In this document: piece after piece, positions 26,071 to 63,684 of the stretch
Layout: the number at the start of each line of letters is the position of its first letter
Numbering within the stretch: position 1 is the first letter of the stretch
NCBI GenBank assembly: GCA_963930775.1
Contig: OZ005703.1
Coordinates: 1,426,001-1,490,000 of the forward strand
DNA length: 64,000 nucleotides
From: Cliona cf. orientalis
Taxonomy: Eukaryota; Porifera; Demospongiae; Clionaida; Clionaidae
Direction of reading: 5' to 3'
Position numbers and translations under genes: made by a program
Notes under the pieces: generated by a model
What the model saw: the letters and a program-made list of their open reading frames with translations, nothing else
What the model was told of the DNA's origin: nothing
The model's database searches: none

Positions 26071-26355
26071 CCACCTCCCCCCATACACACCAATTATTAT
26101 AGAGCAATTATTACTTTTAGTTCCAGTTAATTAACTTGGTATTTTTATCATTGTTACACTACCATTAATAATAATATTATTATTATAATAATGCACATGT
26201 TGCGCATGTTATTATTAATTTTGGTTCATGGATCATCCACTCGTGTAGCATGCACTAGCAATCGTGCGTTTCATCACATGCATGCTGCATGCATTCTAGA
26301 CATTATTTTTATACTATCCTTATTATATGTTGACCTGTCAAAGGCTTTGTGGAAG
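26071..26355. other. Gap between OSBPL9 and the protease gene
   Basis: 285 bp: OSBPL9 3' flank with a TAATAATAATATTATTATTA palindrome near 26165, then AT-rich sequence upstream of the protease. No further feature recognised. Confidence 0.4.
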
Positions 26356-27405
26356 ATGGCAACCAGTGCCGGTGATTCCTCTATTATCCAGAAAGAATTC
26401 CCATCTGAGTTCGAAAATGTTTTCAATCCTCGCCGTCAGTCGCCAAAGCAAGCTGCTGAGAAGGTGCTGACAGCTGGCAATGACCATCGACAACGCATAT
26501 TGAAAGTAGATACCCCCGCTCCGGGCTTCTTGTATGATGGCGGATCAGGATTTCCCTTCATTGGACTTCTCCGCGTGGAATTCAACAAGAATTACTTCAT
26601 GGGAACAGCCACAATGATCGCCCATGGGAGCACTGTTTTAACGTGTGCACATAATGTGGTAGGCTATGACCCGACGACAAAAGAATTCATGGATCCAATA
26701 TATCCAACTAGCGCGTGGTTCGAACTCAGAGAAAACAAGCCTAGAAGAGGGTCGGTTATGATAAAACGGTACCAAGTGACCAGTATTGATGTGTATCCCC
26801 CCTATTTCAAGGATCCATCATCTTCATCTGGCTTTGATCTTGCTCTATGCTGGATTGATGTGCCTGATGATGACTGCATAGTGAAAGAGCTCTACTCCAA
26901 GTATCGTGGTAATACACCCAACCCACTATCTGGATTCTATATCAGCAGCAAGGCAGCGGTAGTCGGATTCCCTGGTGAACACAGTGGTGAAAAGTGGGGT
27001 ATGGCTGCAGATGTTCCCCGTTCTAAGGCTCAAGATTGGAAGTTTGGCCCAAATCCATTTGATGATGACTCGGATGAAGAACAGAAAGAAAACGAACCGG
27101 ATATTCTCACGTATGACTTTATTGATACAAGTCCAGGCCAGAGTGGGAGTCCAGTCATGGGAATGAAACCAGCCGATATTATAGGTGTGCACACTGGAGG
27201 GAGTGATTTTCAGAAGAAAAACTGGGCCACTCACATCACTCCTAAAAAACTTCAGTGGATAGCAGGAGAACTGGGACATCAATGGATTGTTGATAGTGAC
27301 TATGGCACTTCTTTCTTGCGTAAATGTACATGCAACACTTCTTCCGGTCGGCGACGTCGATATGCCAGGTTTAGTCATAGTCAGGGTGACTTTATACCCT
27401 TTTGA
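26356..27405 (+). CDS. Intronless V8-like (S1 family) serine protease
   Basis: A single open frame of 349 aa from the chosen ATG, which begins MATSAGDSS. The frame is open further upstream, but that extension looks non-coding. A trypsin-fold catalytic triad is visible: His99 in VLTCAHNVVGY, Asp161 in GFDLALCWID, and Ser263 in SPGQSGSPV, followed by DIIGVHTGG. The GQSGSP plus I-G-V-H pattern is typical of glutamyl-endopeptidase/V8-like proteases, common in bacteria and fungi, rather than of classical GDSGGP trypsins. No signal peptide is seen, so it is probably cytosolic or has an unseen upstream exon. An acidic stretch (DDDSDEEQKENEPD) precedes the catalytic Ser. The lack of introns contrasts with its neighbours. 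Natural substrate unknown. Confidence 0.8.
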   Translation: MATSAGDSSIIQKEFPSEFENVFNPRRQSPKQAAEKVLTAGNDHRQRILKVDTPAPGFLYDGGSGFPFIGLLRVEFNKNYFMGTATMIAHGSTVLTCAHNVVGYDPTTKEFMDPIYPTSAWFELRENKPRRGSVMIKRYQVTSIDVYPPYFKDPSSSSGFDLALCWIDVPDDDCIVKELYSKYRGNTPNPLSGFYISSKAAVVGFPGEHSGEKWGMAADVPRSKAQDWKFGPNPFDDDSDEEQKENEPDILTYDFIDTSPGQSGSPVMGMKPADIIGVHTGGSDFQKKNWATHITPKKLQWIAGELGHQWIVDSDYGTSFLRKCTCNTSSGRRRRYARFSHSQGDFIPF

Positions 27406-31844: not shown

Positions 31845-45065
<13,221 letters not shown>

Positions 45066-45575: not shown

Positions 45576-47669
45576 ATGGCTCAACAACGAGAGAATTACA
45601 AACCTATCGGATTCAAAACCGTTCAGCTTCTCAAGGACCAGACCCTTGGCATTGGCTCTTATGGAAAAGTCTGCAAAGCAAAATGTGATGACCTCCTCTG
45701 TGCTGCTAAGCTCATACACGAAACTCTCTTTGATCCAACCGCACAGCAGCTAATAGCACCTCAGAGAGAGCACAGGCTACCAATGAGGAGGTTTGAACAA
45801 GAGTGTGAGTTCTTGAGCACCATAAGACACCCAAATATTGTCCAATATCTGGGCATTTATCGAGATCCTGATACTGGCCTCCCAGCACTTCTAATGGAGC
45901 TGATGGACGATAGCCTAACCCACTTTCTGGAAAGCTCCCCACAGCTGATTCCCTACCACATTCAAGTCAATGTGTGTCATGATGTCACTCTAGCTCTCTC
46001 GTTTCTCCACTCCAATGGCATCATTCACAGAGATCTCTCCAGCAACAACGTTCTGTTGTGCGGCAACGTCCTAGCCAAAGTGACTGATTTTGGAATGGCA
46101 AGGCTAGGTAATCAAAACCCACGAGCAACTCAGCTTACCTTCACCATGTGTCCAGGCACAGATGTCTACATGCCTCCAGAAGCCATTCTAGATAAGCCAG
46201 TGTACACAGAGAAGATTGACTGCTTCTCATTTGGTGTCATCATTATCCAGACTATAACACGAGAGTTCCCCAAACCTGGAGATCGACGAAAGAGAATTCG
46301 AATCAATCAACCAGGATTACCGCGGATAGTTGAAGTACCCATTTCAGAGATTGAACGACGACAAAACCACATCTCTGAAATTGATCCAAACCATACTCTC
46401 CTACAAGTTGCACTAGACTGTCTTAAAGATGAGGATATTGAACGCCCCTCAGCTCAGCAGCTCTGTGAAAGAGTAGCAGCTCTGAAAGAACATCCACAGT
46501 ACAGGGAGAATGTGGAGGCTGTTGAAACAAGAAGCACAGCAGAGCAGGATAGAAGTGATGAGAGAGACAGGGAACTAAGATCACTGAGACAGCAACATAG
46601 TCGTCAAGTTCAGGACCTTCAACAGATTATTCAATCACAGTCAAATCTCTTAGCCCAGAAAGATCAAACCATTGCACAAAAAGAGCAAGCATTGAGAGAG
46701 AAAGATGAAACAATTGCTGAAAAGTTAGTAGAGATTAATCAACTAGGGAGACAGCTGGGACGAGTCAACAAGCAGCTAAGAGAGAGTGAACAGAGACGAA
46801 TTGTTGAACTAGAGCAGTTGAGATCAGCCACAGATGCAGCACCCAGAAGCCAAGAGCAGAGCAGCAGTAGAGCCAGCATCAAGCTGACATGGAGGGAGGG
46901 GAGGAGAGCAGTGCCACAATGTAAACAGAGTGACCCATACACTGTAGGTGTGGTTGGTAATACACTATACATTAGGACATGGAGTCAAGAAATCTTTGGT
47001 TACACTATCCTCAGCTCCAGCTGGTCTCGACTTCCAAACAGCCCTATCAGTGATTGCCCCTCAGTCATCATCAACAACCTTCTCACTCTTATTGGTGGTA
47101 GTCATGATGGTACCATCACCAATCAACTGTTTAGCCTGACTGGGGAGGGCAGTGATAGGAGATGGACTGAGGAATTCCCACCCATGCAAACAGAACGATG
47201 GAAATCAATTGCACTGAGCACTGAAACAGCTCTGATTGTTGCTGGGGGAAGGGCAAAGGACCGTTCATCGTTGAACACTACTGAAGTAATGAATATTGCA
47301 ACTAAACAGTGGTCCACTGCTGCTGATCTACCTCAATCAGTGGTACGTGCTCCAGCAGCGGTCTGTGGTGATCAGGTGTACATCCTTGGGAAGCCTAGCA
47401 TGTACACATGTTCAGTGACTATCCTCACCCAGCCACAATCGTTGAATATAGTTGGTGTATGGAGTAAAGTTGCTACACCACCAGTCACACAGACCACGTG
47501 TGTGTCCATTCATGATCGACTGCTAGCAATTGGAGGGAAGGATTCAGACAAGGAACCCAGCACAGCCATTCACATGTACAGCCCGACCACTGACTCCTGG
47601 GAGGTCATTAGTCACATGAGGACACCACGGCGGCTTTGTATTGCAGCTGTCCTCCCCAACAACAACTGA
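45576..47669 (+). CDS. TKL-type kinase with coiled coil and Kelch propeller, gene A (3'-truncated)
   Basis: Single-exon protein of 697 aa. The start MAQQRE is supported by the same start in the two paralogues. The kinase domain (about 14-305) is complete: GIGSYGKV loop (25-32), Lys45 in CAAKL, HRDLSSNN (Asp153, Asn158), DFG at 171-173 and MPPEA at 199-203. It should be active. Residues about 325-455 form a charged coiled coil with heptads such as KDQTIAQ, KEQALRE and KDETIAE. The rest is a Kelch propeller of up to six blades (paired Gly-Gly and spaced Trp). It stops at LPNNN after losing one C near 47663 relative to genes B and C; the lost frame continues intact (LMVVGG to about 47758), so most of blade six is missing. 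No signal peptide or membrane segment: cytosolic. Function unknown. Confidence 0.85.
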   Translation: MAQQRENYKPIGFKTVQLLKDQTLGIGSYGKVCKAKCDDLLCAAKLIHETLFDPTAQQLIAPQREHRLPMRRFEQECEFLSTIRHPNIVQYLGIYRDPDTGLPALLMELMDDSLTHFLESSPQLIPYHIQVNVCHDVTLALSFLHSNGIIHRDLSSNNVLLCGNVLAKVTDFGMARLGNQNPRATQLTFTMCPGTDVYMPPEAILDKPVYTEKIDCFSFGVIIIQTITREFPKPGDRRKRIRINQPGLPRIVEVPISEIERRQNHISEIDPNHTLLQVALDCLKDEDIERPSAQQLCERVAALKEHPQYRENVEAVETRSTAEQDRSDERDRELRSLRQQHSRQVQDLQQIIQSQSNLLAQKDQTIAQKEQALREKDETIAEKLVEINQLGRQLGRVNKQLRESEQRRIVELEQLRSATDAAPRSQEQSSSRASIKLTWREGRRAVPQCKQSDPYTVGVVGNTLYIRTWSQEIFGYTILSSSWSRLPNSPISDCPSVIINNLLTLIGGSHDGTITNQLFSLTGEGSDRRWTEEFPPMQTERWKSIALSTETALIVAGGRAKDRSSLNTTEVMNIATKQWSTAADLPQSVVRAPAAVCGDQVYILGKPSMYTCSVTILTQPQSLNIVGVWSKVATPPVTQTTCVSIHDRLLAIGGKDSDKEPSTAIHMYSPTTDSWEVISHMRTPRRLCIAAVLPNNN

Positions 47670-48577
47670 TGGTGGTGGGAGGATGCACTGGCAAAGAGGT
47701 CACTACGGTCACAGACTCGACAGAATTAGCAATAATCGAGTTAATGTACATGTAGTAAGTATTATATAGGTAGTTTTGGTGTTTACACAAGTCATATTAA
47801 TTATCAGAGTAATATTTTAAGTCCAAATCACCACCAAGAGTGCATCACCATCATACACTTCTGCCACCACCCACACTATATTCTCATTCAACAGGCCACT
47901 AGCTATAGTGTACTAAAATTCACAAGGTACTTATTTGATCCTACTAGGGTAGAGAACAGGTAGCAAAAGTGGAGGGGCGGTGGGCTCAGATCTTTGACTG
48001 TGCACTGTGACAATATTTAGGCTATATGCCCACAGTCCACCTAGGGGGGTCTGGGGGCATGCTCCCCCAGAAATTTTTGGAAATTTCAACTCTGAGAACG
48101 ATTCTGATGCATTCTGGCAGCAGTTTTTGGACTGCTATATTTTTACTCGAGCACTCTTTTGCAAACACCCAGAACTATGTTGCTGTAATTTTATAGTATG
48201 GGTATGTGATGGGGGGGGGGGAGGGGGCATTTCCAAAGTGGAGGGGCTGAAGCCCCCCCCCCCCCCCCCCCCCCCCCCCATTTCTCCACCCCTATCTATG
48301 AGCAAGATATTATGCATAGGCCTATATGTGGCCTTGGTATTGTACAGACTGTCTGAGATATTATTTGTACATGTACCTATATATTTCATCCATGTCTCAG
48401 TATGGTCTTGACTGCTTATCTCTCTCTTGCTAGCTGCCATTATCTCCCTGACTTGAGTGAGTGTCTCCCCTTCCCCCTCCACTGCTGACGGTTCATGCCT
48501 TTAGGGTTCTTAGCTCCCAGTCCATCACCATTATAAATAATTATTAGTGTAGTGGTTAACCGTTTAATAATATTATA
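47670..48577. other. 3' flank of gene A
   Basis: Contains the out-of-frame remnant of the final Kelch blade (47670-47758). AT-rich sequence and G- and C-homopolymer runs near 48210-48280 follow. No gene recognised. Confidence 0.5.
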
Positions 48578-50268
48578 ACAAGTATAAAAACAATTGAATA
48601 AAATTGAAGGATGAAGTAGGGATGGCAGGATCAAAAAGTACATAAACAAGATTTGTAGGGATAATCACATCCACTATACATCCGTACACTTGCTTTTCTC
48701 GATTATCATGCATCTAACTTTAATTGTTCGTTAAGCACTCTTGACTTGCATATGGAAGATATTACTGTTCTTGCATCCCTCAAAAGCAAGTGTAGGGATG
48801 TATAGTGGATGTGATTATCCCTACAAATCTTGTTTATGTAATATGGCGGTATATTAGTGTCATAATTATGAATAATGTATAGTATTGTTTTGGGAGGGGT
48901 ATCCATTCTATTTGGGGGTAGCTAGTTTTTTCTTCTGGGGGGTATCCATTTCTTTTGGGGGGGGGGGGGGGATGGGAACTTTCGTTAGTGTTTATTTCAT
49001 TTGGGGGGTACTATGCTTTGGGAGGGGTATCCATTTCATATGGGGGTATAGTCTTATTATTGGAGGGGTGGGCCATTTCTTGGGGGTAGTTTTTTTAGGG
49101 TGTGGTGCCAGCCACGCCCCCACACGGAGAACAAAGGTCACGTGATCGGGTGCTTCCATATAAAGGTCAAAGGTCAATGATACAGTGCTTTAAATGGAAA
49201 ACCTTTTTAAGGCTATCCATTCAATATCGACAGTTGTGAAGGTCTATGAACTTCGGATAACTGGTAAATATTCCCATTATTGATCATTGAAGATTTAAGA
49301 GCCATCGGATAGTCCGTGAGATCATTAAAATTCTATAGAAGTGATAGCATCACCAAAGGTCTGTAATAAGAGGCCTAAATGTATATCATTGCATGCACAA
49401 TCAGAGGTACTTTCGAATGCCGGAAGTACGATTGCTGAAGGTACACATAGGTACATGTAATCTATCCGATCATTGGTGGCCTGATTTGCTTTTAAGTCTA
49501 GGCATAGATAATCAAAGCTGAGAGTAATAAACTACAACATATCCAGCTAGTCCAGAATCCCTTAAAATCACCATGCATGTTAAGCCCATACTATATAATA
49601 GTACGTTCCTATATAACCTTTCTCAGCAAGTCTGCATGATAGCAACTGGCGCTGTAGCATTGATCAGATGGCTCTCAAATCTTCCACAATCCAAGATATG
49701 AACATTTACAAGCTTTCTTCAATAATAAGACCTTCATAACCATTAGTGTTGGATGCACAGCGATAAAAGAAAGGTTTCCATTTGAAGCACAGTATCACTG
49801 ACCTTTGACCTTGTTACAGGACAGTAGCTGATCACGTGACCTTTGCTCTCTGTGCATGTGGAGGCGTGGCTGGCACTTACACCCGATACCCCAAGAAATG
49901 GCCCACCCCTCCAGCAATAAAAGACACCCCCCCCCCACAATGAAATGAACACCCCTCCCAAAACAATAGTACTAGCTATAATGTTATAGCTAGCTAGCTA
50001 CGTCTTTCACTACGATCCCAATATGAAGACGGGTACCCCACCAAAGTGTACAGTGTACTACCCCCAATATAAATTACTATACCCCCCAAAGAAATATACA
50101 CCCCAGCAAGAAGAAATTTCTACCTCTAAATGACCACCCCCAAATAAGATGGATACCCCTCCCACAAAGAGACTACACCCTCCATAATTATGACACTAAT
50201 ATAGCCCCATATATGTACTTTTTGATCCTGCCATCCCTACTTCATCCTTCAATTGTTTTTATACTTGT
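48578..50268. mobile_element. Inverted-repeat element 'E1' copy 1, interrupted by a nested element
   Basis: Left arm begins ACAAGTATAAAAACAATTG and carries GAAGGATGAAGTAGGGATGG; the right end is its complement at 50219-50268. An inner inverted pair (CACTATACATCC / GGATGTATAGTGG) lies at 48661-48810. The second, uninterrupted copy is at 51588-51958. Positions 48841-50212 are foreign. Confidence 0.85.
48841..50212. mobile_element. 1.37-kb foldback element 'E2' nested in E1
   Basis: Left end ATATGGCGGTATATTAGTGT, right end ACACTAATATAGCCCCATAT. Arms of at least 390 bp stay complementary far inward: GGAGGGGTATCCAT versus ATGGATACCCCTCC, GCCAGCCACGCC, GGTCACGTGATC and AAGGTCAAAGGTCA, each with its inverse on the other arm. 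ATGTA at 48836-48840 and 50213-50217 is a target-site duplication. No transposase frame. Confidence 0.88.
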
Positions 50269-50967
50269 TTCTGTTCTTTTTTTATTGCTCTCAGAATGAT
50301 TCATCTTATATGATTCGCTGTCAATATTCCAGTGTAGAAGAATGAAGATCATATTGCCGCAAAATTCTTAGCCACGCCCCTCGTTAAAGGCTTGCGTTCC
50401 TATGCCTATGAGGAGGTTGACAAAGAAGGCAGCGTTAGGCGGCCGATATCGATGTAGCAATGAGACTCTTTCGTTTAGGGAGAAAACCAAGTTCTGGCAG
50501 CAGCTAATCTGTACGTTACCGCTGAGCTCCTCGAGCCTTGCGCACCGGGCTTCATATCCATGCCATCTATCCAGCGGATCACTAGCACTGCACGCGCTAG
50601 CGAGTAGCTCGCTTATGACTAGCGCCTTACTGTTCCTCGAGCCTTGCACTTTCATATCCTTGATCGATCCAACAGAGCGCTAGAACACTAGCGCTAGGGC
50701 TAGGCATGGCAATCGCCGAGGCCTCGAGGGCCTAGGGCCAGGGCGCTGTCACATGACTTCACCATGGCAACACATTCTGAGCATGCGCATTAGATCACAA
50801 AATGGCGTATCTGATTACTGTCAATGCACCGTACACACCCACTATTACGTAACTGTCAAGATAACGCAATATTAGCGTGCCACTGCAATGCGCGCTACTA
50901 AATGGAATGGATTTATACTTAAACTAAGATGAGAGGTCAAGGCAATCTCGAGCTAGCCCTGGAAACT

Positions 50968-50999
<32 letters not shown>

Positions 51000-51587
51000 T
51001 GACAAATGGCCATTTTTTTGAACATCTGGTTCTGGCATATACAATTGAATTGATGGATGATCTTGGTCTTGTTAGATAGATAATTTGCTGGAGATTCCAA
51101 TTTTCACACTTAGAAATTTCACAAAATTACCTATTTTGAGATATTTGGGTATTTGTAATGTATTACATATATGGCATATCCGGGCCATCCCTACTTATAG
51201 AGTCTACCGACTCTATGATAAAATATATAATGTATGCATTCCTGTATGATTAGAAATAAATTATTGCTATAATAATATAATAATATTATAATATTATAAG
51301 GATAATATTAATGGAGAATCATTGGAGAAGCAGTTTCTGAGGACAGCCAGGCTAGTACTGCGCTGGGATAGGTAGACTCGCAGCCTCAACGTACGGGCGC
51401 GGCACGGCCCTCGGCACGGTCGGCATACTAAACAGCCAGCTTAGTAGTGACAAAGATAGTCGATAATAGCTATACTATAACTAGTACTAGAGTCTCATCG
51501 CTACTTGGCCGCCTGGAACAGCTTTATCGGCTAGGCTACGCGAACTTCGGCACCTCCCATCTATACTAGCTGTACAGTTGCACTCAT
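50269..51587. other. Intergenic stretch without a supported gene
   Basis: Includes a 95-codon minus-strand open frame at 50655-50368 (starts MKVQGSRNSKAL) of unknown family, also open on the other strand. An (AAAG)n tract lies at about 50968-50997, and TA-rich sequence near 51270-51310. Nothing else recognised. Confidence 0.4.
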
Positions 51588-51958
51588 GCAATAAAAAAAG
51601 GAACAGAAACAAGTATAAAAACAATTGAATAAAATTGAAGGATGAAGTAGGGATGGCAATGCCAAAAAGTACACAAACAAATAATCACAACCACTATACA
51701 TCCCTACGCTTGCTTTTCTACAGACCTATTGATGTCAACTTATCCAAGGCATGCTATACTTGGAGTGTTCTTGACTTACATATGGGAGAAATTTACCCTG
51801 TCAGTCTTTTATGATCCCAATGCTACTCAAAAAAGCAAGCGTAGGGATGTATAGTGGTTGTGATTATCTCTTATCCCTAAAAATCTTGTTTGTATACTTT
51901 TTGGCATTGCCATCCCTACTTCATCCTTCAATTTTATTCAATTGTTTTTATACTTGTA
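51588..51958. mobile_element. Inverted-repeat element 'E1' copy 2, uninterrupted
   Basis: Left GAACAGAAACAAGTATAAAA with GAAGGATGAAGTAGGGATGG; right CCATCCCTACTTCATCCTTC and TTTTTATACTTGT. Inner arms AACCACTATACATCCCTACG / CGTAGGGATGTATAGTGGTT. About 370 bp, non-coding; it ends about 40 bp before the gene B palindrome. Confidence 0.88.
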
Positions 51959-51996
51959 TGTATAGGAATCCGCATGCGCTATTAACTTTTATGGAG

Positions 51997-52008
51997 TGCG
52001 CATGCGCC
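51997..52008. promoter_or_regulatory. TGCGCATGCGCC palindrome upstream of gene B
   Basis: Perfect GCGCATGCGC core; a second CCGCATGCGCT lies 28 bp upstream. It is about 1 kb from the start of gene B because a transposon (52031-52943) sits between them. Without the insert the distance would be about 110 bp. Confidence 0.55.
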
Positions 52009-52030
52009 AACTTATTAATCAGCAAGGACA

Positions 52031-52943
52031 GGTGTCCTAACGGTAAACGTCCCGTCCAAATTACGTCCGGGGGACGTAAACGGGTTAACGAGCTACGTCC
52101 GGGGGGACGCATGTCGCCATCGAATATTGTCCGGTGGGACGCGATTCACCGTTGAACTGCGTCCCACAGCGTAGAATGTCGTCCCCCTCGCAGACTTCCG
52201 CTGCTCGCGGCTGCCGTACTCAATAGCAAGAGTATGGTCTTGACAGTAGTAAGATAATGTTGTTGAATACTATCTTAGTATAATAATAATAATTATTATA
52301 CTTCATAATGAACAAAAATTACTTATCATGATCTATGAATCAAAGATATCAACAACAAGAATGGCAGTGCCATAGTTCAGTGTACGTCTCAAGGAACAGA
52401 GAAGAATCCAACACAGCGTAGCTATATGATACCAATGCTCACACTTGTCGCATTGAATCATGTCTCCATACAGTGATTCTGGCATTTGGCTGCATTTTCT
52501 TGTGGTTGGAAACCGCACAAGTCCTGTAAACACTGCAATAGGTGATTTCTCATCTGTCAAGTGGTACTGTGCATGGAAGTATACTGACATGTACTAGGTA
52601 TTTCACGGTCATATTATTTATTACATACCGTGCTCTTCTCTCCATCATTCTCATCATCCTGCTTCCCATCTAGTCTGGGTGCCAGCTGAGCCCCTTCACA
52701 AGAGGGAGGAAGGGGCTGGGCATCCCATCAGTGCCTGTCTTCTCTCCATCATCTTCCTCTCCATCAGTACCTAATTAGTACGATACAGCCCTTTGGCGCC
52801 TTTTTCATTGGGGCGCTCGCGGCAGCGGGCGGACGTTATTCCAGCGCGCGGGACGGATATCGTTAATTGATTGCGTCCCCAGGACGTATTATTTTACGTC
52901 CCCCGGACGCGATTCTACGGGGGACGCTATACGGCATGACACC
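52031..52943. mobile_element. DNA transposon in the gene B promoter
   Basis: Left end GGTGTCCTAACGGTAAACGT; the right end read in reverse is GGTGTCATGCCGTATAGCGT. Both are followed by an identical CGTCCGGGGGACGTAAA block. Many subterminal GGGACG/CGTCCC motifs lie in both ends (52045-52180 and 52830-52928). Flanking sequence resumes the gene A-like promoter (GGCCGGGGAGC, then TTGCTAGCGCGGCGTC). No transposase; the interior holds a PHD-like fragment. Target duplication not resolved. Confidence 0.8.
52333..52590 (-). pseudogene. PHD-finger-like fragment carried inside the transposon
   Basis: The minus-strand frame contains GDMIQCDKCEHWYHIATLC. This matches the Cys-x2-Cys...Trp-Tyr-His part of a PHD zinc finger, preceded by CSQMPESL and a further Cys. 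The first zinc-binding pair and any downstream domain are missing or diverged. It looks like a captured or decayed gene piece, not a working protein. Confidence 0.5.
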
Positions 52944-53017
52944 GGCCGGGGAGCAGGAGGCATACAGGGTGCGGCTCACTTTCTTCATTTTTGCTAGCGC
53001 GGCGTCTTACTTTGATG

Positions 53018-55213
53018 ATGGCTCAACAACGAGACAGGCCTACCGGATTCAAAACCGGTCAGCTTCTCAAGGACCAGACCCTTGGCATTGGCTCTTATGG
53101 AAAAGTCTGCAAAGCAAAATGTGACGACCTCCTCTGTGCTGCTAAACTCATACATGAAACTCTCTTTGATCCAACTGCACAGCAGCTAATAGCACCTCAG
53201 AGAGAGCACAGGCTGCCAATGAAGAGGTTTGAGCAAGAGTGTGAGTTCTTGAGCACCATAAGACACCCAAATATTGTCCAATATCTGGGCATTTGTCGAG
53301 ATCCCGACACTGGCCTCCCAGCACTTCTAATGGAGCTGATGGACGATAGCCTGACCCACTTTCTGGAAAGCTCCCCACAGCCAATCCCCTACCACATTCA
53401 AGTCAATCTATGTCACGATATCACTCTAGCTCTCTCGTTTCTCCACTCCAATGGCATTATCCACAGAGATCTCTCCAGCAACAACGTTCTATTGCGTGGT
53501 AATGTCATAGCCAAAGTGACCGACTTTGGAATGGCAAGACTGGGCGATCAAAACCCACGAGCAACTCGGCTTACCTTCACCATGTGTCCAGGAACAGATG
53601 TCTACATGCCTCCAGAAGCCATTCAAGAGGAGCCAGTGTACACTGAGAAGATTGATTGCTTCTCATTCGGTGTAATCACTCTCCAAATTTTATCACGACA
53701 GTTTCCAAAGCCCGGTAATCGTAAGAAAAGAGTCCCAATTAGCCTACCAGGTTTGCCCAGTGATACTATAGCTGAGGTACCTATACCTGAGACTGAACGT
53801 CGACAAAACCATATCAGTGAAATTGATCCAAACCATACCCTCCTACAAGTTGCCCTCGACTGCCTAAAGGACAGAGATGCTGAACGCCCCTCAGCTCAGC
53901 AGCTCTGTGAAAGGATAGCAGTGCTGAAAGAAGACCCACAGTACAATGATGGTAGAAGTGATGAGAGAGACAGAGAACTAAGATCACTGAGACAGCTACA
54001 TAGTCAGCAAATTGAGAGCCTTCAACAAGTCATTCAAGACAAGGATCAAACTATTGCAATGAAGGATCAAATTATCCTACAAAAAGATCAATCACTACGA
54101 GAGAAAGATGAAACAATAAGACAGCAAGAGAGAGAGAAAAACATAATAATGGAGAACAAAAAGAGAGATTTAAGTCAAAAAGTGGGTGAGATCAGTCGAC
54201 TAGAGAGACAGCTGGAAGAAAAGGAACAAGTGATAGCTCACTTTCAGAAACGAATTGCTGAACTAGAACAACCGAGACCAGCTGTCACAGATGCAGCATC
54301 CAGAAGCAGAGAGCAGAGCAGCAGTAGAGCCAGCATCAACCTGACGTGGAAGGAGGGGGAGAAAGCACCTCGTAAGATGAGTGGGTCATACTGTGCAGCT
54401 GTGGATAGTAGTACACTATATATCCGGACGGGGATTAATGATCAAGTCTACGCTTACACTATTAGCACCTCCAGCTGGTCTCAACTTCCAAAGAGTCCTG
54501 CCCGTAGCTGCCCCTCGGTCATCATTAACAACCTCCTCACTCTTGTTGGTGGTAGTCATGATGGTACCATCACCAATCAGCTATTCAGCCTGACTGGGGA
54601 GGGCAGTGGTAGGAGGTGGACTGAGGAATTTCCACCCATGCCAACAAAACGACGGGGATCAACTGCACTATGTGCTGGAAGAGCTCTGATTGTAGCTGGG
54701 GGAAAAACAAAGGAACGTTCAGTGCTAACCGTGGTTGAAGTAATGAACATGGCAACTAAACTGTGGTCCACTGCAGCTTCTCTACCTCAACCTGTGATGC
54801 CAGTATATGCTCCAGCAGCAGCCTGTGGTGATCGTATCTACATCCTAGGGGAGCGTTACATGTACACATGTTCAGTGACTACCCTCATCCTATCACAATC
54901 GTTGAACATGCTAGGTGTATGGAGTGAATTGGCTGTACCACCAGTCACAGATACCACTTGTGTGTCCATTCAAGGTCGACTGCTAGTGATTGGAGGGAAG
55001 GGTTTAGACGAGGAACCCACCTCAGCCATTCACATGTACAACCGAACCACTGACTCCTGGGAGGTCATCAATCACATGGGGATACCACGATGGCAGTGTA
55101 TTGCAGCTGTCCTCCCTAACAACCAACTGATGGTAGTGGGAGGTAGGACCGGCAAAGGGTACGGTACAGACACAGACTCGACAGAATTAGCTGCAATTGA
55201 GTTATTGCAGTAA
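53018..55213 (+). CDS. TKL-type kinase with coiled coil and Kelch propeller, gene B
   Basis: Intronless, 731 aa from MAQQRD (an ATG directly before it, at 53015, would add one Met). Kinase domain about 12-305 with GIGSYGKV, Lys43, HRDLSSNN (Asp151), DFG at 169 and MPPEA; nearly identical to genes A and C up to IDCFSFG. The end of the domain differs more (LQILSRQFPKPGNRKKRV). Coiled coil about 320-440 with heptads KDQTIAM, KDQIILQ, KDQSLRE and KDETIRQ. The propeller starts LTWKEGEKAP, which probably supplies the closing strand. Six blades follow, ending LMVVGGRTGKGYG and ELAAIELLQ. It is the most complete copy. The promoter is split by a transposon. Confidence 0.88.
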   Translation: MAQQRDRPTGFKTGQLLKDQTLGIGSYGKVCKAKCDDLLCAAKLIHETLFDPTAQQLIAPQREHRLPMKRFEQECEFLSTIRHPNIVQYLGICRDPDTGLPALLMELMDDSLTHFLESSPQPIPYHIQVNLCHDITLALSFLHSNGIIHRDLSSNNVLLRGNVIAKVTDFGMARLGDQNPRATRLTFTMCPGTDVYMPPEAIQEEPVYTEKIDCFSFGVITLQILSRQFPKPGNRKKRVPISLPGLPSDTIAEVPIPETERRQNHISEIDPNHTLLQVALDCLKDRDAERPSAQQLCERIAVLKEDPQYNDGRSDERDRELRSLRQLHSQQIESLQQVIQDKDQTIAMKDQIILQKDQSLREKDETIRQQEREKNIIMENKKRDLSQKVGEISRLERQLEEKEQVIAHFQKRIAELEQPRPAVTDAASRSREQSSSRASINLTWKEGEKAPRKMSGSYCAAVDSSTLYIRTGINDQVYAYTISTSSWSQLPKSPARSCPSVIINNLLTLVGGSHDGTITNQLFSLTGEGSGRRWTEEFPPMPTKRRGSTALCAGRALIVAGGKTKERSVLTVVEVMNMATKLWSTAASLPQPVMPVYAPAAACGDRIYILGERYMYTCSVTTLILSQSLNMLGVWSELAVPPVTDTTCVSIQGRLLVIGGKGLDEEPTSAIHMYNRTTDSWEVINHMGIPRWQCIAAVLPNNQLMVVGGRTGKGYGTDTDSTELAAIELLQ

Positions 55214-56088
55214 GCTACATGCATTGATAATAATATTATGTGTATACCGGTAATAATAATAATAATAATTATTATTATTATAGTTATGGTGTATACATAA
55301 GTCCTTCACCAAAGCCCTGAGACACTGCACAAGAGATATTAGCAGCTGCTGACTTTGGGCTAAAGTAAGCATGCATGCGCACATGGGAAAATTCCAATGA
55401 TGGCATGGAATGCATGGTTAGCATAGACTTGGAGGTGTGTAAACTTAATTGGAAATTAAATTCAGTCTGTATGTAAAATCAGTCATCCTCACCCATGCCT
55501 TTTTGATAGATGATCTTGTATTTCAGTAAGGGCGAAATGTGCTGGGTTATTGGCTTTGACTCCGCCACCATCGTTAATGAATTAGGAGATTGGAGTAGGT
55601 GATCATGACATGACGTGGTACCTAGGATTGTAACAATAAATTAAATATTATCATGCAATTATTATTATATAATTGACAGCGCAATAATGATTGCACATTC
55701 GCATGAGTATAATCAAGGGCTTATGGCAGTTACGTGCCCTGGCTCTTTGAATTTCCATTTGGGATCTATAAGCCCTTGGTGTAGAAAATAATCATGATTA
55801 TTATCATGTATTAGCTAAACATATTCATATCTCAGTATGGTTTATCTCTCTCTTGCCAGCTGTCATTATCTCCTCCCTGAGTATCTCTGCATTAATAACC
55901 AACAGTTACTAAGCGGTACCTATCATCATCATAATTCCATAGCTTGCGTGATCACAACTTAATTAGCCAAATGCACAAAAATTACTATGCATACGTTTCC
56001 GTTTCGGAATGCGCATGCGCTAAATGATGGTACGTGGGGTGTGGCTCACAATCACGCCCACAGGTTTTTGCTATACTCACTTCCATCG
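55214..56088. other. Gap between genes B and C, with gene C promoter
   Basis: (TAA)n/(ATT)n sequence at about 55228-55281 and a short inverted pair AGGGCTTAT / ATAAGCCCTT near 55707 and 55768. The promoter palindrome follows at 56010. No gene seen. Confidence 0.5.
56010..56021. promoter_or_regulatory. TGCGCATGCGCT palindrome upstream of gene C
   Basis: Perfect GCGCATGCGC core, 68 bp before the start codon. Preceded by GGAA as in the copies at 45395 and 59969. Confidence 0.55.
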
Positions 56089-58341
56089 ATGGCTCAACAG
56101 CGAGATAAACCTATCGGATTCAAAACCGTTCAGCTTCTCAAGGACCAGACCCTTGGCATTGGATCTTATGGAAAAGTCTGCAAAGCAAAATGTGATGACC
56201 TCCTCTGTGCTGCTAAACTCATACATGAAACTCTCTTTGATCCAACCGCACAGCAGCTAATAGCACCTCAGAGAGAGCACAGGCTACCAATGAGGAGGTT
56301 TGAGCAAGAGTGTGAGTTCTTGAGCACCATAAGACACCCAAATATTGTCCAATATCTGGGTATTTGTCACGATCCCGATACAGGCCTCCCAGCACTTCTA
56401 ATGGAGCTGATGGACGATAGCCTGACCCACTTTCTGGAAAGCTCCCCACAGCCGATCCCCCACCATATTCAAGTTAATATATGTCACGATATCACTCTAG
56501 CTCTCTCGTTTCTCCACTCCAATGGCATCGTCCACAGAGATCTCTCCAGCAACAATGTTCTATTGCGTGGTAATGTCATAGCCAAAGTGACTGACTTTGG
56601 AATGGCAAGACTGGGTGATCAAAACCCACGAGCAACTCGGCTTACCTTCACCATGTGTCCAGGTACTGATGTCTACATGCCTCCAGAAGCTGTTCTAGAT
56701 AAGCCAGTGTACACGGATAAGATCGACTGCTTCTCATTTGGTGTCATTGTTGTCCAGACTATAACACGAGAGTTCCCCAAACCTGGAGATCGCCGAAAGA
56801 GAATTCAAATCAATCAACCAGGATTGCCGCCGATAGTCGAAGTACCCATTTCAGAGATTGAGCGACGACAAAACCATATTGCTGAAATTGATCCAAACCA
56901 CTCTCTTTTACAAGTTGCACTAGATTGCCTTAAAGATGAGGATATTGAACGCCCCTCAGCTCAGCAGCTCTGTGAAAGAGTAGCAGCTTTGAAAGGAGAT
57001 TCTCAGTACAGTGAGAGTGTGAGGGCTGTTGAAGCAAGAAGCACAGCAGAGCAGGATAGAAGTGACGAGAGAGAGAGGGCACTGAGACAGCAAGTTCAAA
57101 GCCTTCAACAAATTATTCAAGAAAAGGATCAAGTTATTGTAAGGAAAGATCAAACCATCACACAGAACTATCAAACACTGAGAGAGAAAGACGGAACATT
57201 AACTGAACTAGAACAACGAGAGAGAAAGAAAAATATAATAATTGAAAACAAAGAGAGAGAGCTGAGACAAAAAGTGGGTGAGATCAGTCAACTAGAGAGA
57301 CAGCTGGAAGAGAGTGAACAAGTAATTAATCAATTTCAGAGACAGCTGGGAGAGAGTGAGCAAGTGACAGCTCAGTTTCAGGAACGGATAGCTAAACTAG
57401 AGCAACTGAGACCCGCCACAGCTGCAGCACCCAGAAGCAAAGAGCAGAGCAGCGGTAGAGCCGGTATCAAGCTGACGTGGAGGGAGGGGGAGAAAGCACC
57501 ATGTAAGATAAGCAGTTCATACTGTGCAGCCACAGATGATGGAGCACTATATATTCGTAAGTGGACTCGAGAGGTCTATGCTTACTCTATCAAATCCTCC
57601 AGCTGGTCGCAACTTCCAAGTAGTCCTTACAATGACTGCCCCTCAGTCATCATCAACAACCTCCTCACTCTTATTGGTGGTTATCATGGCGGTACCACCA
57701 CCAACCAGCTGTTCAGCCTGACTGGGGAGGTCAGTGATAGGAGGTGGACTGAGGAATTCCCACCCATGCCGACAAGGCGATATCAATCAATTGCACTGTG
57801 CACCGAAACAGCTCTGATTGTAGCTGGGGGAGAGACAATGCAAGGCTCAAAGCTGGGTACTGTTGAGATAATGAACACAGCAACTAAACAGTGGTCCACT
57901 GCTGCTAACCTACCTCAACCAGTGATATGTGCTCCAGCAGCAGTCTGTGGTGATCAGATTTACATCCTGGGGGAGTCTAATGTGTACACATGTTCAGTGA
58001 CTATTCTCATGCAATCACGATCATCATGGAGACAAGTTGCTGCACCACCAGTCAAAGAAACCACTTGTGTCTCCATTCATGGCCAACTGCTAGCAATTGG
58101 AGGTAAAGGTTCAGACAGGGAGCCCACTTCAGCCATTCACATGTACAATCCATCGGCTGATTCCTGGGAGGTCATCAGCCACATGGGGACACCACGAAGG
58201 AGCTGTATTGCAGCTGTCCTCTCCAACAACCAGCTGATGGTAGTGGGAGGTATGATTGGCAAAGAATTTGGCACGTACACAGACTCAACAGAATTTGCTG
58301 CAATAAATATTATAGTTATTATCGCAAGCTATACAGCATAA
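56089..58341 (+). CDS. TKL-type kinase with coiled coil and Kelch propeller, gene C
   Basis: Intronless, 750 aa from MAQQRD. Kinase domain about 12-305: GIGSYGKV, Lys43, HRDLSSNN (Asp151), DFG at 169, MPPEA; all catalytic residues kept. The coiled coil is the longest of the three (about 320-465), with an added QLEESEQVINQFQRQLGESE repeat. The propeller begins LTWREGEKAP and runs six blades to LMVVGGMIGKEFG, then DSTEFAAINIIVIIASYTA, a hydrophobic tail not found in gene B. Blade loops differ from A and B mainly at IRKWTREVY, MPTRRYQSI and GETMQGSKLG, while strands are conserved. Gene A resembles C more than B at the kinase C-lobe. Confidence 0.88.
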   Translation: MAQQRDKPIGFKTVQLLKDQTLGIGSYGKVCKAKCDDLLCAAKLIHETLFDPTAQQLIAPQREHRLPMRRFEQECEFLSTIRHPNIVQYLGICHDPDTGLPALLMELMDDSLTHFLESSPQPIPHHIQVNICHDITLALSFLHSNGIVHRDLSSNNVLLRGNVIAKVTDFGMARLGDQNPRATRLTFTMCPGTDVYMPPEAVLDKPVYTDKIDCFSFGVIVVQTITREFPKPGDRRKRIQINQPGLPPIVEVPISEIERRQNHIAEIDPNHSLLQVALDCLKDEDIERPSAQQLCERVAALKGDSQYSESVRAVEARSTAEQDRSDERERALRQQVQSLQQIIQEKDQVIVRKDQTITQNYQTLREKDGTLTELEQRERKKNIIIENKERELRQKVGEISQLERQLEESEQVINQFQRQLGESEQVTAQFQERIAKLEQLRPATAAAPRSKEQSSGRAGIKLTWREGEKAPCKISSSYCAATDDGALYIRKWTREVYAYSIKSSSWSQLPSSPYNDCPSVIINNLLTLIGGYHGGTTTNQLFSLTGEVSDRRWTEEFPPMPTRRYQSIALCTETALIVAGGETMQGSKLGTVEIMNTATKQWSTAANLPQPVICAPAAVCGDQIYILGESNVYTCSVTILMQSRSSWRQVAAPPVKETTCVSIHGQLLAIGGKGSDREPTSAIHMYNPSADSWEVISHMGTPRRSCIAAVLSNNQLMVVGGMIGKEFGTYTDSTEFAAINIIVIIASYTA

Positions 58342-58644: not shown

Positions 58645-58727
58645 CTTTGCCAAATTCCCAGCTTTCATAATCTTCCTGCACTCCTCATTCCATTTGTCCT
58701 GATCAAAATTCAACACCTTTCTTCCGG
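58645..58727 (-). pseudogene. Exon-like fragment, possibly from a NADAR-domain gene
   Basis: On the minus strand the frame reads RKVLNFDQDKWNEECRKIMK then AGNLAK, followed by a GTATGA splice donor. Spacing of W-x4-C-x2-IM-K and LAK recalls the NADAR (YbiA-like N-glycosidase) family. Only about 27 codons are present and no partner exon was found, so this is a remnant at best. Confidence 0.3.
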
Positions 58728-59560
58728 GACCACTTGGTCTACGAACACTAGACCCCCAGTAAGTACAGTGTACATAAATGTTTGGATCATAATATTATTA
58801 TTATTCGGAATTATCCGATATTGTAGATTTTTCTAGCAGCATTAGACTTTTAACAAGTGTATAGTGTCATATTACATGTTTATGGAGCTGGTATCATGCA
58901 TGTTGTAATGAATTTCCTTTATTTAGAGAAATTGACAATGTATATGTTGTATCATTGATTTTATCTTGCAGTGACTATGTGTACAATGGCTACTACATCA
59001 ACTCTGTGGACTCTAGCAACTACAACACAGCAAGGGGTTTCAACTACCACCAGGGACCAGTGAGTGGCGTAGAAATACACTTTCAAGTCATTGTATCAAC
59101 CTTTACCAGTTTTGGAGTATAGCCAACCAGAGCTACATGTTCCCTTTTGAAATTGCATTGTGTACTATTTGGGACTGCTGCTATATATATGGAGCCGATT
59201 ATATATGTGCCTTAATTTTTTTAACTCGGTATGAAGTATATTGGACTATTCTTCACTTTTGTCTCTCTATCCCTCCCCTCTAGGAATGGTTGTGGGTGAT
59301 TGGCTACTACCTACGAGCCAAGCTCCACTTTGCCCGTCGTACCGGAGTCCCAGTGGATGACACCATCACAGAGCTACACCACATCCTCAGTCGACACGCC
59401 CAGGCTCTCCGTGAGTCTCCGTGGAAGGGCCTCCCAGAGCTGACCAATAGGAACCGAGAGGAGTGTGCTGACTCTTGCCCCGTACAGGCGTGGTCCATGG
59501 CCACTCTGCTCGAAGTGTTCTAGCAGCAGTGTAAAAAGAATTAGAGGAACACTGCACTGT
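58726..59560 (+). pseudogene. Duplicated 3' end of AGL (end of exon 14, exons 15 and 16)
   Basis: 58726-58758 repeats the end of AGL exon 14 with its donor. 58972-59059 and 59284-59523 repeat exons 15 and 16 with intact splice sites and frame ([28 protein letters not shown]). Introns between them are diverged. In exon 16 a 9-base loss (ATGACATAC in the parent) creates TAG right after LLEVF, so the frame ends early. No upstream AGL exons exist here, so it cannot make the enzyme. Confidence 0.92.
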
Positions 59561-62892: not shown

Positions 62893-63684
62893 ATGACCTA
62901 ATGGCCTTTGGCCTTGAGGCTTTATGGCCAAATGGCCTTAAGGTAAGCAAGCAATAATTTATCCCTGTTTAAGGTACCATGGACTATACTCTAGCCTGTC
63001 CCCTGGTGTCTTGCTAGGAAATTATAGCTATTCATGACTCTGTGTCAGTTTTGATCTGATACTGAAATATAACATTGAAAGTTGAACTATCCGATCAGTG
63101 AAAAGATATGCACTCGTTTGATCATGCTGGTGCAATTAGATTCTTCCGAGATAAATAGTCCCCATAACAACGGTATCCTGTCCAGGTACACGACAGTCAA
63201 GTCCAACTTAACATGTTTGTGTCAACATGACAGGGTAACTCTATTAACTTAGCTACACACCTGTGATTATATCGTACAATAATTATACATAATATTATTA
63301 TCAATTTTATGACACTTTGAGTACTATCATACTATTATTAAGGACCATCCATAAGTTACCCTGTCATGTCAACACAAACATATTACTGACGTTAAGTTGG
63401 ACTCGACTGTCATGTACCTAGACAGGATACCATTGTTATGGGGACTATTTATCTCGGAAGAATCTAATTTGCACCAGTAGCTATGATCAAATGAGTGCAT
63501 GTGTACCTACTCTTTTCACTGCCATCAGATCTGATAGTTTAACAGTGTCAGATCAAAACTGATACAGAGTCAGTAAGAGACCTGGGGGCAGGCTAGAGTC
63601 ACAGTCCATGGTACCTCAAACAGGGACACATTGCTTGCATAGTTGACTATAAAGCCACAAGGCCAAAGGCCATTAGGCCACAAG
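62893..63684. mobile_element. Large foldback element with arms of about 340 bp
   Basis: Left arm 62893-63242 and right arm 63350-63684 are inverted copies, for example CCTAATGGCCTTTGGCCTTG, TTCCGAGATAAATAGTCCCC and ACATGACAGGGTAAC with their complements. A roughly 107-bp AT-rich loop separates them. Small indels, no coding frame. Confidence 0.88.

What the first reader, a model, noticed from the sequence alone, without database searches (positions are those of the whole stretch)
45576..58341. Array of intronless kinase - coiled coil - Kelch genes with conserved kinase and varied propeller loops
Seen: three long intronless frames with the same order of parts. Kinase catalytic residues and long kinase stretches are nearly identical. 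In the propeller the strands are kept, but short stretches between them differ in every copy (MQTERWKSI / MPTKRRGST / MPTRRYQSI; RAKDRSSLN / KTKERSVLT / ETMQGSKLG). Known: Kelch propellers bind partners through loops on one face. Inference: a family of cytosolic sensors with one output and diversified recognition, perhaps for defence or self/non-self. I do not know a described system with this make-up.
Basis: partly seen in the sequence, partly recalled or inferred. Interest (0 to 1): 0.78.

Follow-up and report, generated by a model that had tools for sequence, protein, structure and literature searches.

The report
Large family of Kelch-sensor kinases
An animal-like genome carries a very large family of intronless genes that join a nearly constant enzyme switch (a protein kinase) to a propeller-shaped grip whose likely contact points differ from copy to copy, as expected of many sensors sharing one output.

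Summary
In detail: K1 (45576-47669), K2 (53018-55213) and K3 (about 56089-58341) each encode kinase, coiled coil and six-bladed Kelch propeller in one frame. They belong to a family of at least 169 gene places on 18 contigs, mostly clustered. All 40 copies checked keep the catalytic residues. Median kinase dN/dS is 0.18, Kelch 0.48.

Fast-changing propeller positions coincide with those that touch ligand in Keap1: nonsynonymous rate 1.8-2.6 against 0.6-0.7 elsewhere, in two subfamilies, and lower at every slid register. A test for sites with dN>dS exceeds simulated nulls, modestly. Synonymous rate is also raised there, and plain top-versus-bottom loop tests are mixed. Kinase and Kelch halves have partly separate histories, pointing to conversion or exchange.

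Best reading: a repertoire of cytosolic Kelch-recognition kinases with one shared output. Defence or self/non-self is plausible but untested: no expression, population or ligand data. K1 lacks the end of its propeller through a one-base frameshift. Eight full-text searches aimed at it listed no paper that, by title and abstract start, describes it.

The parts
45576..47669 (+). K1: kinase - coiled coil - Kelch frame, 697 aa, end of propeller lost by a one-base frameshift
   Evidence: homology continues in another frame to 47746
45636..46469 (+). K1 kinase domain
   Evidence: Pkinase residues 21-298, E 2.5e-41
46878..47666 (+). K1 Kelch propeller (incomplete)
53018..55213 (+). K2: intact kinase - coiled coil - Kelch gene, 731 aa from the MAQQ start
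53072..53911 (+). K2 kinase domain
   Evidence: Pkinase residues 20-299 of the frame from 53015; solved relatives IRAK4, RAF, plant receptor kinases, after one EGFR construct
53912..54331 (+). K2 coiled coil
   Evidence: 3.5-residue periodicity p=0.0010; helix 314-416 in the model
54332..55210 (+). K2 Kelch propeller, six blades closed by the N-terminal strand (my reading of the strand order)
   Evidence: AlphaFold2 pTM 0.70, pLDDT 65; Foldseek to designed Kelch proteins, KLHL20, KLHL3, KLHL12, NS1-BP, Keap1
54641..54664 (+).
54698..54730 (+). K2 blade 3 B-C loop after the double glycine (GGKTKERSVLT), variable
56089..58341 (+). K3: kinase - coiled coil - Kelch gene, 750 aa from the MAQQ start (the open frame itself begins at 55987)
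56143..56976 (+). K3 kinase domain
   Evidence: Pkinase residues 53-330, E 8.6e-41
57466..58338 (+). K3 Kelch propeller
44246..45065 (+). 3' exons of the neighbouring glycogen debranching enzyme gene, the arm that was copied
   Evidence: GDE_C E 1.2e-18; repeats D7, D11, D15
58721..59523 (+). second copy of those 3' exons downstream of K3: mark of a segmental DNA duplication across the array
   Evidence: GDE_C E 1.4e-18; blocks of 92-98% identity, and further matching blocks to 59788

Best explanation
K1-K3 are members of a very large, clustered, intronless family of cytosolic receptor-like kinases. The C-terminal six-bladed Kelch propeller binds a peptide or protein partner through its top ring, which has been diversified from copy to copy. 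The coiled coil joins subunits. Ligand-driven clustering lets the conserved kinase phosphorylate a common target, so that many recognition heads feed one output. Shown: architecture, copy number, conserved catalytic residues, slowly changing kinase, and fast sites on the contact ring of a known Kelch domain. Inferred: cytosolic place, dimerisation, activation by clustering, a shared target, and a role in sensing foreign or damaged-self molecules.
For: Domains; kinase residues kept in 40 of 40 copies. dN/dS medians over 105 pairs of 15 copies: kinase 0.18, coiled coil 0.49, Kelch 0.48. Kelch fold and relatives with known peptide ligands. Contact-equivalent positions (15, set by motif only): beta 1.79 vs 0.60 in subfamily A (MWU 3e-7), 2.57 vs 0.70 in B (5e-8), highest at shift 0 of 17 shifts in all six rows. 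Residue entropy at 21 such positions 3.05 vs 1.72 bits over 46 frames. Test for dN>dS sites: 2dlnL 14.1 in A and 7.7 in B, 0 of 20 null simulations as high in either. Top versus bottom loops with columns of at least 60% occupancy: beta>1 at 42 of 109 vs 6 of 49 sites in A (Fisher 0.0005), 35 of 108 vs 6 of 41 in B (0.022). At least 169 places, 137 in 27 clusters.
Against: beta/alpha at the ring is only about 0.9-1.2 (1.2-1.4 on gap-free columns) and alpha is raised there too, so relaxed constraint or mutation/conversion hot spots could contribute. Top vs bottom loops on gap-free columns: Fisher 0.126 in A, 0.0125 in B; rank tests 0.48 and 0.11; rank tests on the fuller columns 0.15, 0.14, 0.059. 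Single-site calls hardly exceed the null: A 8 sites at P>0.9 (null mean 2.7, max 6), B 2 (null mean 0.9, max 3). The blade-4 C-D loop on the other face varies most in length. No expression, ligand, output or polymorphism data.
Confidence: 0.55

Rival explanations
1. Ordinary lineage-specific expansion of docking kinases: each Kelch head recruits a different endogenous substrate or scaffold (as KLHL adaptors do), in development or cell signalling, with no defence role.
For: Closest natural propellers are KLHL20, KLHL3, KLHL12, NS1-BP and Keap1, several solved with endogenous peptides. Paralogues with distinct endogenous ligands would also differ at ring positions. Kelch dN/dS is below 1 overall.
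Against: At least 169 places in clusters with interrupted copies look like a birth-and-death repertoire rather than a stable wiring set; slowly changing kinase beside a changed ring in tandem neighbours (K1/K3 dN 0.03 against 0.20).
Confidence: 0.3
2. Neutral birth-and-death with gene conversion: the kinase half is homogenised by conversion and selection, while the Kelch loops drift under weak constraint; no selection for diversity.
For: Kinase dS is below Kelch dS in 91 of 105 pairs; alpha raised at ring sites; gap-free top-versus-bottom test not significant in subfamily A; single-site calls in B within the null; 12 of 61, 12 of 57 and 11 of 60 places have a stop in the match.
Against: Strands and many loop residues change slowly (strand beta 0.41-0.52); the fast sites sit on the contact register in two subfamilies, and the dN>dS test exceeds nulls simulated without such sites.
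Confidence: 0.12
3. Spread as retrocopies or by a mobile element: intronless copies dispersed by reverse transcription or transposition.
For: Intronless frames; similarity of K1-K3 starts at the ATG (positions 0 or -1) and, but for one 32-nt match further on in K1/K2, stops near the stop codon.
Against: Tandem clusters; segmental duplication marked by the debranching-enzyme 3' exons with their introns; the closest pairs share flanks (L011/L012 to +816/+473, L014/L028 to +1373/+1056, L020/L029 from -931/-1056). No repeat of 40 nt or more that brackets each gene was listed in 40001-64000.
Confidence: 0.03

Closest known systems
KLHL / Keap1 Kelch propellers (KLHL20, KLHL12, KLHL3, NS1-BP, Keap1)
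   Same: Six-bladed Kelch fold; best natural sequence and fold matches; variable sites fall at positions that bind ligand in Keap1
   Different: No BTB or BACK domain was reported; here the propeller is fused behind a kinase and coiled coil instead of an E3-ligase adaptor
TKL-type kinases: IRAK4, plant receptor-like kinases (BRI1, BIK1), RAF, MAP3K12
   Same: They fill most of the 60 shown of 1330 solved matches, after one EGFR construct that ranks first; intact catalytic motifs
   Different: No death domain, extracellular or RAS-binding domain reported; group membership was not tested with a kinome tree
Plant tandem kinase and kinase fusion resistance proteins (Pm4, Lr9, Pm57, Sr43)
   Same: Kinases, some in fusion with other domains, that confer resistance to pathogens (titles and abstract starts in a search listing)
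   Different: Plant resistance genes, no Kelch head named in what I saw; here a repertoire of at least 169 places in an animal-like genome, role unproven
LRRK2 (recalled, not tested)
   Same: TKL kinase followed by a beta-propeller (WD40) in one cytosolic protein
   Different: Also has LRR and ROC-COR parts; single gene, no diversified ring
NLR repertoires of invertebrates (recalled)
   Same: Large clustered families with conserved effector part and variable recognition part
   Different: No NACHT or LRR match here; output is a kinase

Membership tests
Kelch propeller proteins | Several Kelch repeats forming a propeller | tested here: met
   Kelch_1 above cut-off in all three; K2 model pTM 0.70 with KLHL matches at E about 5e-14 to 1e-12
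KLHL (BTB-BACK-Kelch) adaptors | BTB and BACK domains before the Kelch part | tested here: not met
   No BTB or BACK among Pfam matches to E 0.001 in three proteins
Active protein kinases | Lys of beta 3, HRD, Asn, DFG, APE Glu | tested here: met
   40 of 40 copies keep each; third glycine of the glycine loop 39 of 40. Activity itself not tested
TKL-group kinases | Closest to TKL kinases in sequence | tested here: inconclusive
   phmmer list dominated by IRAK4, RAF and plant receptor kinases, but an EGFR construct ranks first; no tree made
IRAK | Death domain | tested here: not met
   None in Pfam scan of K1-K3
LRRK / Roco | ROC-COR tandem | tested here: not met
   None in Pfam scan of K1-K3
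NLR receptors | NACHT or NB-ARC domain | tested here: not met
   None in Pfam scan of K1-K3
Kinase fusion immune proteins | Kinase fused to another domain | tested here: met
Kinase fusion immune proteins | Shown role in resistance | not testable with these tools
   No expression or phenotype data
Diversified recognition repertoire | Variable sites at ligand-contact positions | tested here: met
   with the limits given
Diversified recognition repertoire | Population polymorphism or somatic variation at those sites | not testable with these tools
   One assembly only

The most novel reading that the evidence does not exclude
A previously undescribed innate or allorecognition repertoire: well over a hundred cytosolic Kelch-headed kinases in one invertebrate. 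The peptide-contact ring of the propeller is diversified between copies by point change, loop-length change and exchange of halves, while one kinase output is kept, as NLR or plant resistance repertoires do with other parts.
Probability: 0.33. Interest if true: 0.85.

Novelty: new variant of a known kind. Interest (0 to 1): 0.6.

Why it matters
If the ring is a diversified recognition surface, this would add a kinase-based, non-NLR, non-Toll class of intracellular sensor to animals, with a propeller fold that is easy to express and to test with peptide libraries. It would also give a natural library of Kelch specificities: solved Kelch heads such as Keap1, KLHL12 and KLHL3 bind short peptides, so about 170 variants on one scaffold would help decode how Kelch rings choose ligands.

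Tried and rejected
Plain loop test. Loops were split into top (D-A, B-C) and bottom (A-B, C-D) by the K2 model. With columns of at least 60% occupancy, beta>1 was found at 54% of B-C and 24% of D-A sites against 15% of C-D and 7% of A-B sites in 19 copies. Counted this way top beats bottom (Fisher 0.0005, 0.002, 0.022 for the three sets), but rank tests do not (0.15, 0.14, 0.059). On gap-free columns Fisher is 0.126 (A) and 0.0125 (B), rank tests 0.48 and 0.11 (the script stopped with an error before subfamily B, which was run). M7/M8 gave very large statistics (2dlnL 135, 159, 195). I do not rely on them, because dS varies among sites and B-C loops are gapped; the simulation-checked test is the one used.

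Ring positions. The register-derived ones (65, 66, 165, 166, 214, 215) were chosen after a first site list had been seen. The motif-only set (GG+1, +3, +6 in four blades and the two residues after the conserved Arg in two blades; 15 of 16 covered) gives the same result. I also chose its offsets, but from recall of Keap1. Blades 1 and 4 have no clear double glycine and were left out of that set.

Copies dropped. Subfamily A was tested with 19 frames, a subset of 14 and 16. L009, L016, L020, L029 and L055 were left out of the 14 and 16 as more diverged; L056 and L057 were added to the 16. Subfamily B used 12 frames. Six frames were Kelch-only (L010x, L049x in A; L037x, L038x, L042x, L045x in B), their genes being interrupted or cut by the end of the fetched stretch. 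In all 46 frames were read, of at least 169 places; 14 read frames of other subfamilies entered only.

Mosaic test: 22 pairs were picked for bootstrap; in 10 of 22 Kelch dS exceeds kinase dS beyond the 95% interval, in 12 it does not.

Retrocopy or mobile element: rejected for the reasons under the rivals. Naming the species: not achieved. SRCR domains are abundant (172 matches, 150 of 2082 candidates scored, none in the 14 control genomes), which fits an invertebrate animal; a sponge is my guess, not a result. Full-length structure: poor except for the coiled coil and part of the propeller.

Papers: ten searches, eight of them aimed at this architecture or its host (all but 68 and 76). By titles and abstract starts none listed describes it as a gene family; the library is open-access only. 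Seen in passages: PMC6208332, PMC11000336, PMC6891428. The rest were seen in search listings only.

Full report
What is there. The window is C15:1426001-1490000 of an unnamed eukaryote assembly of 216.8 Mb in 149 contigs. Three frames on the + strand, K1 45576-47669, K2 53015-55213 and K3 55987-58341, each give Pkinase followed by Kelch repeats in Pfam. The shared start (MAQQ) lies at 45576, 53018 and 56089. Between the two domains is a stretch of 124-151 residues, 47-48% Glu/Lys/Gln/Arg, with heptad-like periodicity and a single long helix in a model that is otherwise poor. No strongly hydrophobic stretch was found in K1-K3 (largest 19-residue mean 1.4), so a cytosolic protein is likely.

K1 is not intact. 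One base fewer than in K2 and K3 near the end of the propeller gives an early stop, and similarity continues in another frame to 47746. The frames of K2 and K3 are open to the end.

The array is part of a large family. Protein searches of the genome, each of which scored only about 60 of its 1706-2910 candidates, gave 61, 57 and 60 places. With 19 places that I read myself in fetched loci (18 of them new), the union is 169 places on 18 contigs: 137 in 27 clusters (neighbours within 60 kb) and 32 alone. Places with starts under 1.7 kb apart were merged, which joins at least two pairs of distinct genes, so 169 is a lower bound. It includes interrupted copies, and for one of the 19 (L043) only the kinase and coiled coil were seen. 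The array continues at C15:1492903 (75% identity) and has a reverse-strand cluster at C15:1352498-1389170. By my count a stop codon falls in the matched stretch of 12 of 61, 12 of 57 and 11 of 60 places. Some of these are the normal stop, since two such copies that I read, L010 and L050, are open.

How it grew. The 3' exons of the glycogen debranching enzyme gene lie just before K1 (44246-45065). They recur, with introns, at 58721-59523 after K3. That marks duplication at the DNA level. Similarity among K1, K2 and K3 begins at the ATG and, apart from a 32-nt match in K1/K2, ends near the stop, while the closest pairs elsewhere share flanks. Kinase dS is lower than Kelch dS in 91 of 105 pairs. 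In 10 of 22 pairs chosen for bootstrap the gap is beyond the 95% interval: for example L016/L055 0.143 against 0.595, L009 with six C15 or C1 copies 0.37-0.46 against 0.99-1.18, K1/K3 0.216 against 0.394. In 12 of 22 it is not; K1/K2 leans the other way (0.375 against 0.251, interval -0.26 to 0.02). I read this as conversion or exchange acting unevenly on the two halves.

Selection. Median dN/dS over 105 pairs of 15 copies is 0.18 for kinase, 0.49 for coiled coil and 0.48 for Kelch. Each catalytic residue checked is kept in 40 of 40 copies, apart from one loop glycine in one copy. The Kelch part was modelled from the three window sequences (pLDDT 65, pTM 0.70). It has six blades, and its best natural matches are KLHL20, KLHL3, KLHL12, NS1-BP and Keap1, beside designed Kelch proteins. 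Sequence search names the same kinds.

Where the change lies. Keap1 contacts its ligands with residues such as Tyr334, Ser363, Arg380, Asn382, Arg415, Ile461, Arg483, Ser508, Tyr525, Ser555, Ala556, Tyr572, Phe577 and Ser602 (passages of PMC6891428). From recall of the Keap1 sequence these sit one, three or six residues after the double glycine, or one or two after the conserved Arg. The 15 usable positions so defined have nonsynonymous rate 1.79 against 0.60 elsewhere in subfamily A (19 copies) and 2.57 against 0.70 in subfamily B (12 copies). Sliding all positions by 1 to 8 residues either way always lowers the value. With the register-derived positions added (21), they carry 3.05 bits of residue entropy over 46 frames, against 1.72 for the rest and 2.06 for bottom loops. 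Four of six B-C loops vary widely in length, A-B loops hardly.

Results against. The same positions have raised synonymous rate (p 8e-7 to 1e-4 against the rest), so beta/alpha there is only 0.9-1.2. A plain comparison of top and bottom loops is mixed: significant by count on fuller columns, not by rank; on gap-free columns not significant in A, Fisher 0.0125 in B. The C-D loop of blade 4, on the other face, is the most length-variable. A test that lets sites have dN above dS, on gap-free columns and with dS free to vary, gives 2dlnL 14.1 in A (16 copies) and 7.7 in B (12). None of 20 simulated nulls reaches either (largest 10.7 and 2.7). Single-site calls are weak: 8 sites at P>0.9 in A against a null maximum of 6, and 2 in B against a null maximum of 3. 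That is real but modest support for diversifying selection, based on few simulations; conversion was not modelled in it.

How it most likely works. The Kelch ring binds a peptide or protein, the coiled coil joins subunits, and clustering turns on a conserved kinase with a shared target. Binding by the ring is inferred from homology; clustering and the shared target are inferred; a defence role is a hypothesis. The rival that needs most care is a large set of docking kinases for endogenous partners, which would also vary at the ring; I had no KLHL paralogue set as a yardstick.

Known or new. The parts are known. KLHL, IRAK, LRRK and NLR membership each fail a defining domain in the Pfam scan. 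Plant kinase fusion proteins are the nearest in principle (listing). Eight full-text searches aimed at it listed no description of a kinase - coiled coil - Kelch repertoire, but the library is open-access only and no eukaryote protein collection was at hand. In two sponges a Kelch-motif gene was reported as down-regulated after microbial patterns (passages of PMC6208332); I cannot link it to this family.

Noticed in passing
G000:C17:2316568-2323794 (-): Four separate kinase-domain matches inside one open frame of 2925 aa: a giant intronless poly-kinase frame.
   Followed up: no
G000:C7:8485971-8509483 (-): A tandem row of ten short intronless kinase frames (310-369 aa); whether they relate to the Kelch family was not looked at.
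   Followed up: no
32387-45065 (+) and 58721-59523 (+): Glycogen debranching enzyme gene (hGDE_N, amylase and GDE_C parts) with its 3' exons copied downstream of K3; the copy ends with an earlier stop.
   Followed up: partly
48577-48919, 50136-50288, 51608-51957: Short, mutually inverted repeats between K1 and K2 (arms of 42-87 nt, 87-99% matching), like non-autonomous DNA transposons.
   Followed up: no
63108-63500: Large imperfect palindrome (79-nt arms, 95% complementary, within a longer inverted match) near the window end.
   Followed up: no
26191-27405 (+): 404-aa frame with only weak trypsin-like matches below Pfam cut-offs.
   Followed up: no
G000:C8:3780959-3941860 and 9522273-9544131: Dense SRCR-domain clusters (172 matches genome-wide, 150 of 2082 candidates scored), another expanded recognition family.
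   Followed up: no
K2 blade 4 C-D loop, 54875-54922: The most length-variable loop of the family (11 to 82 residues over 46 frames, the longest in one frame), on the face opposite to the contact ring; unexplained.
   Followed up: no
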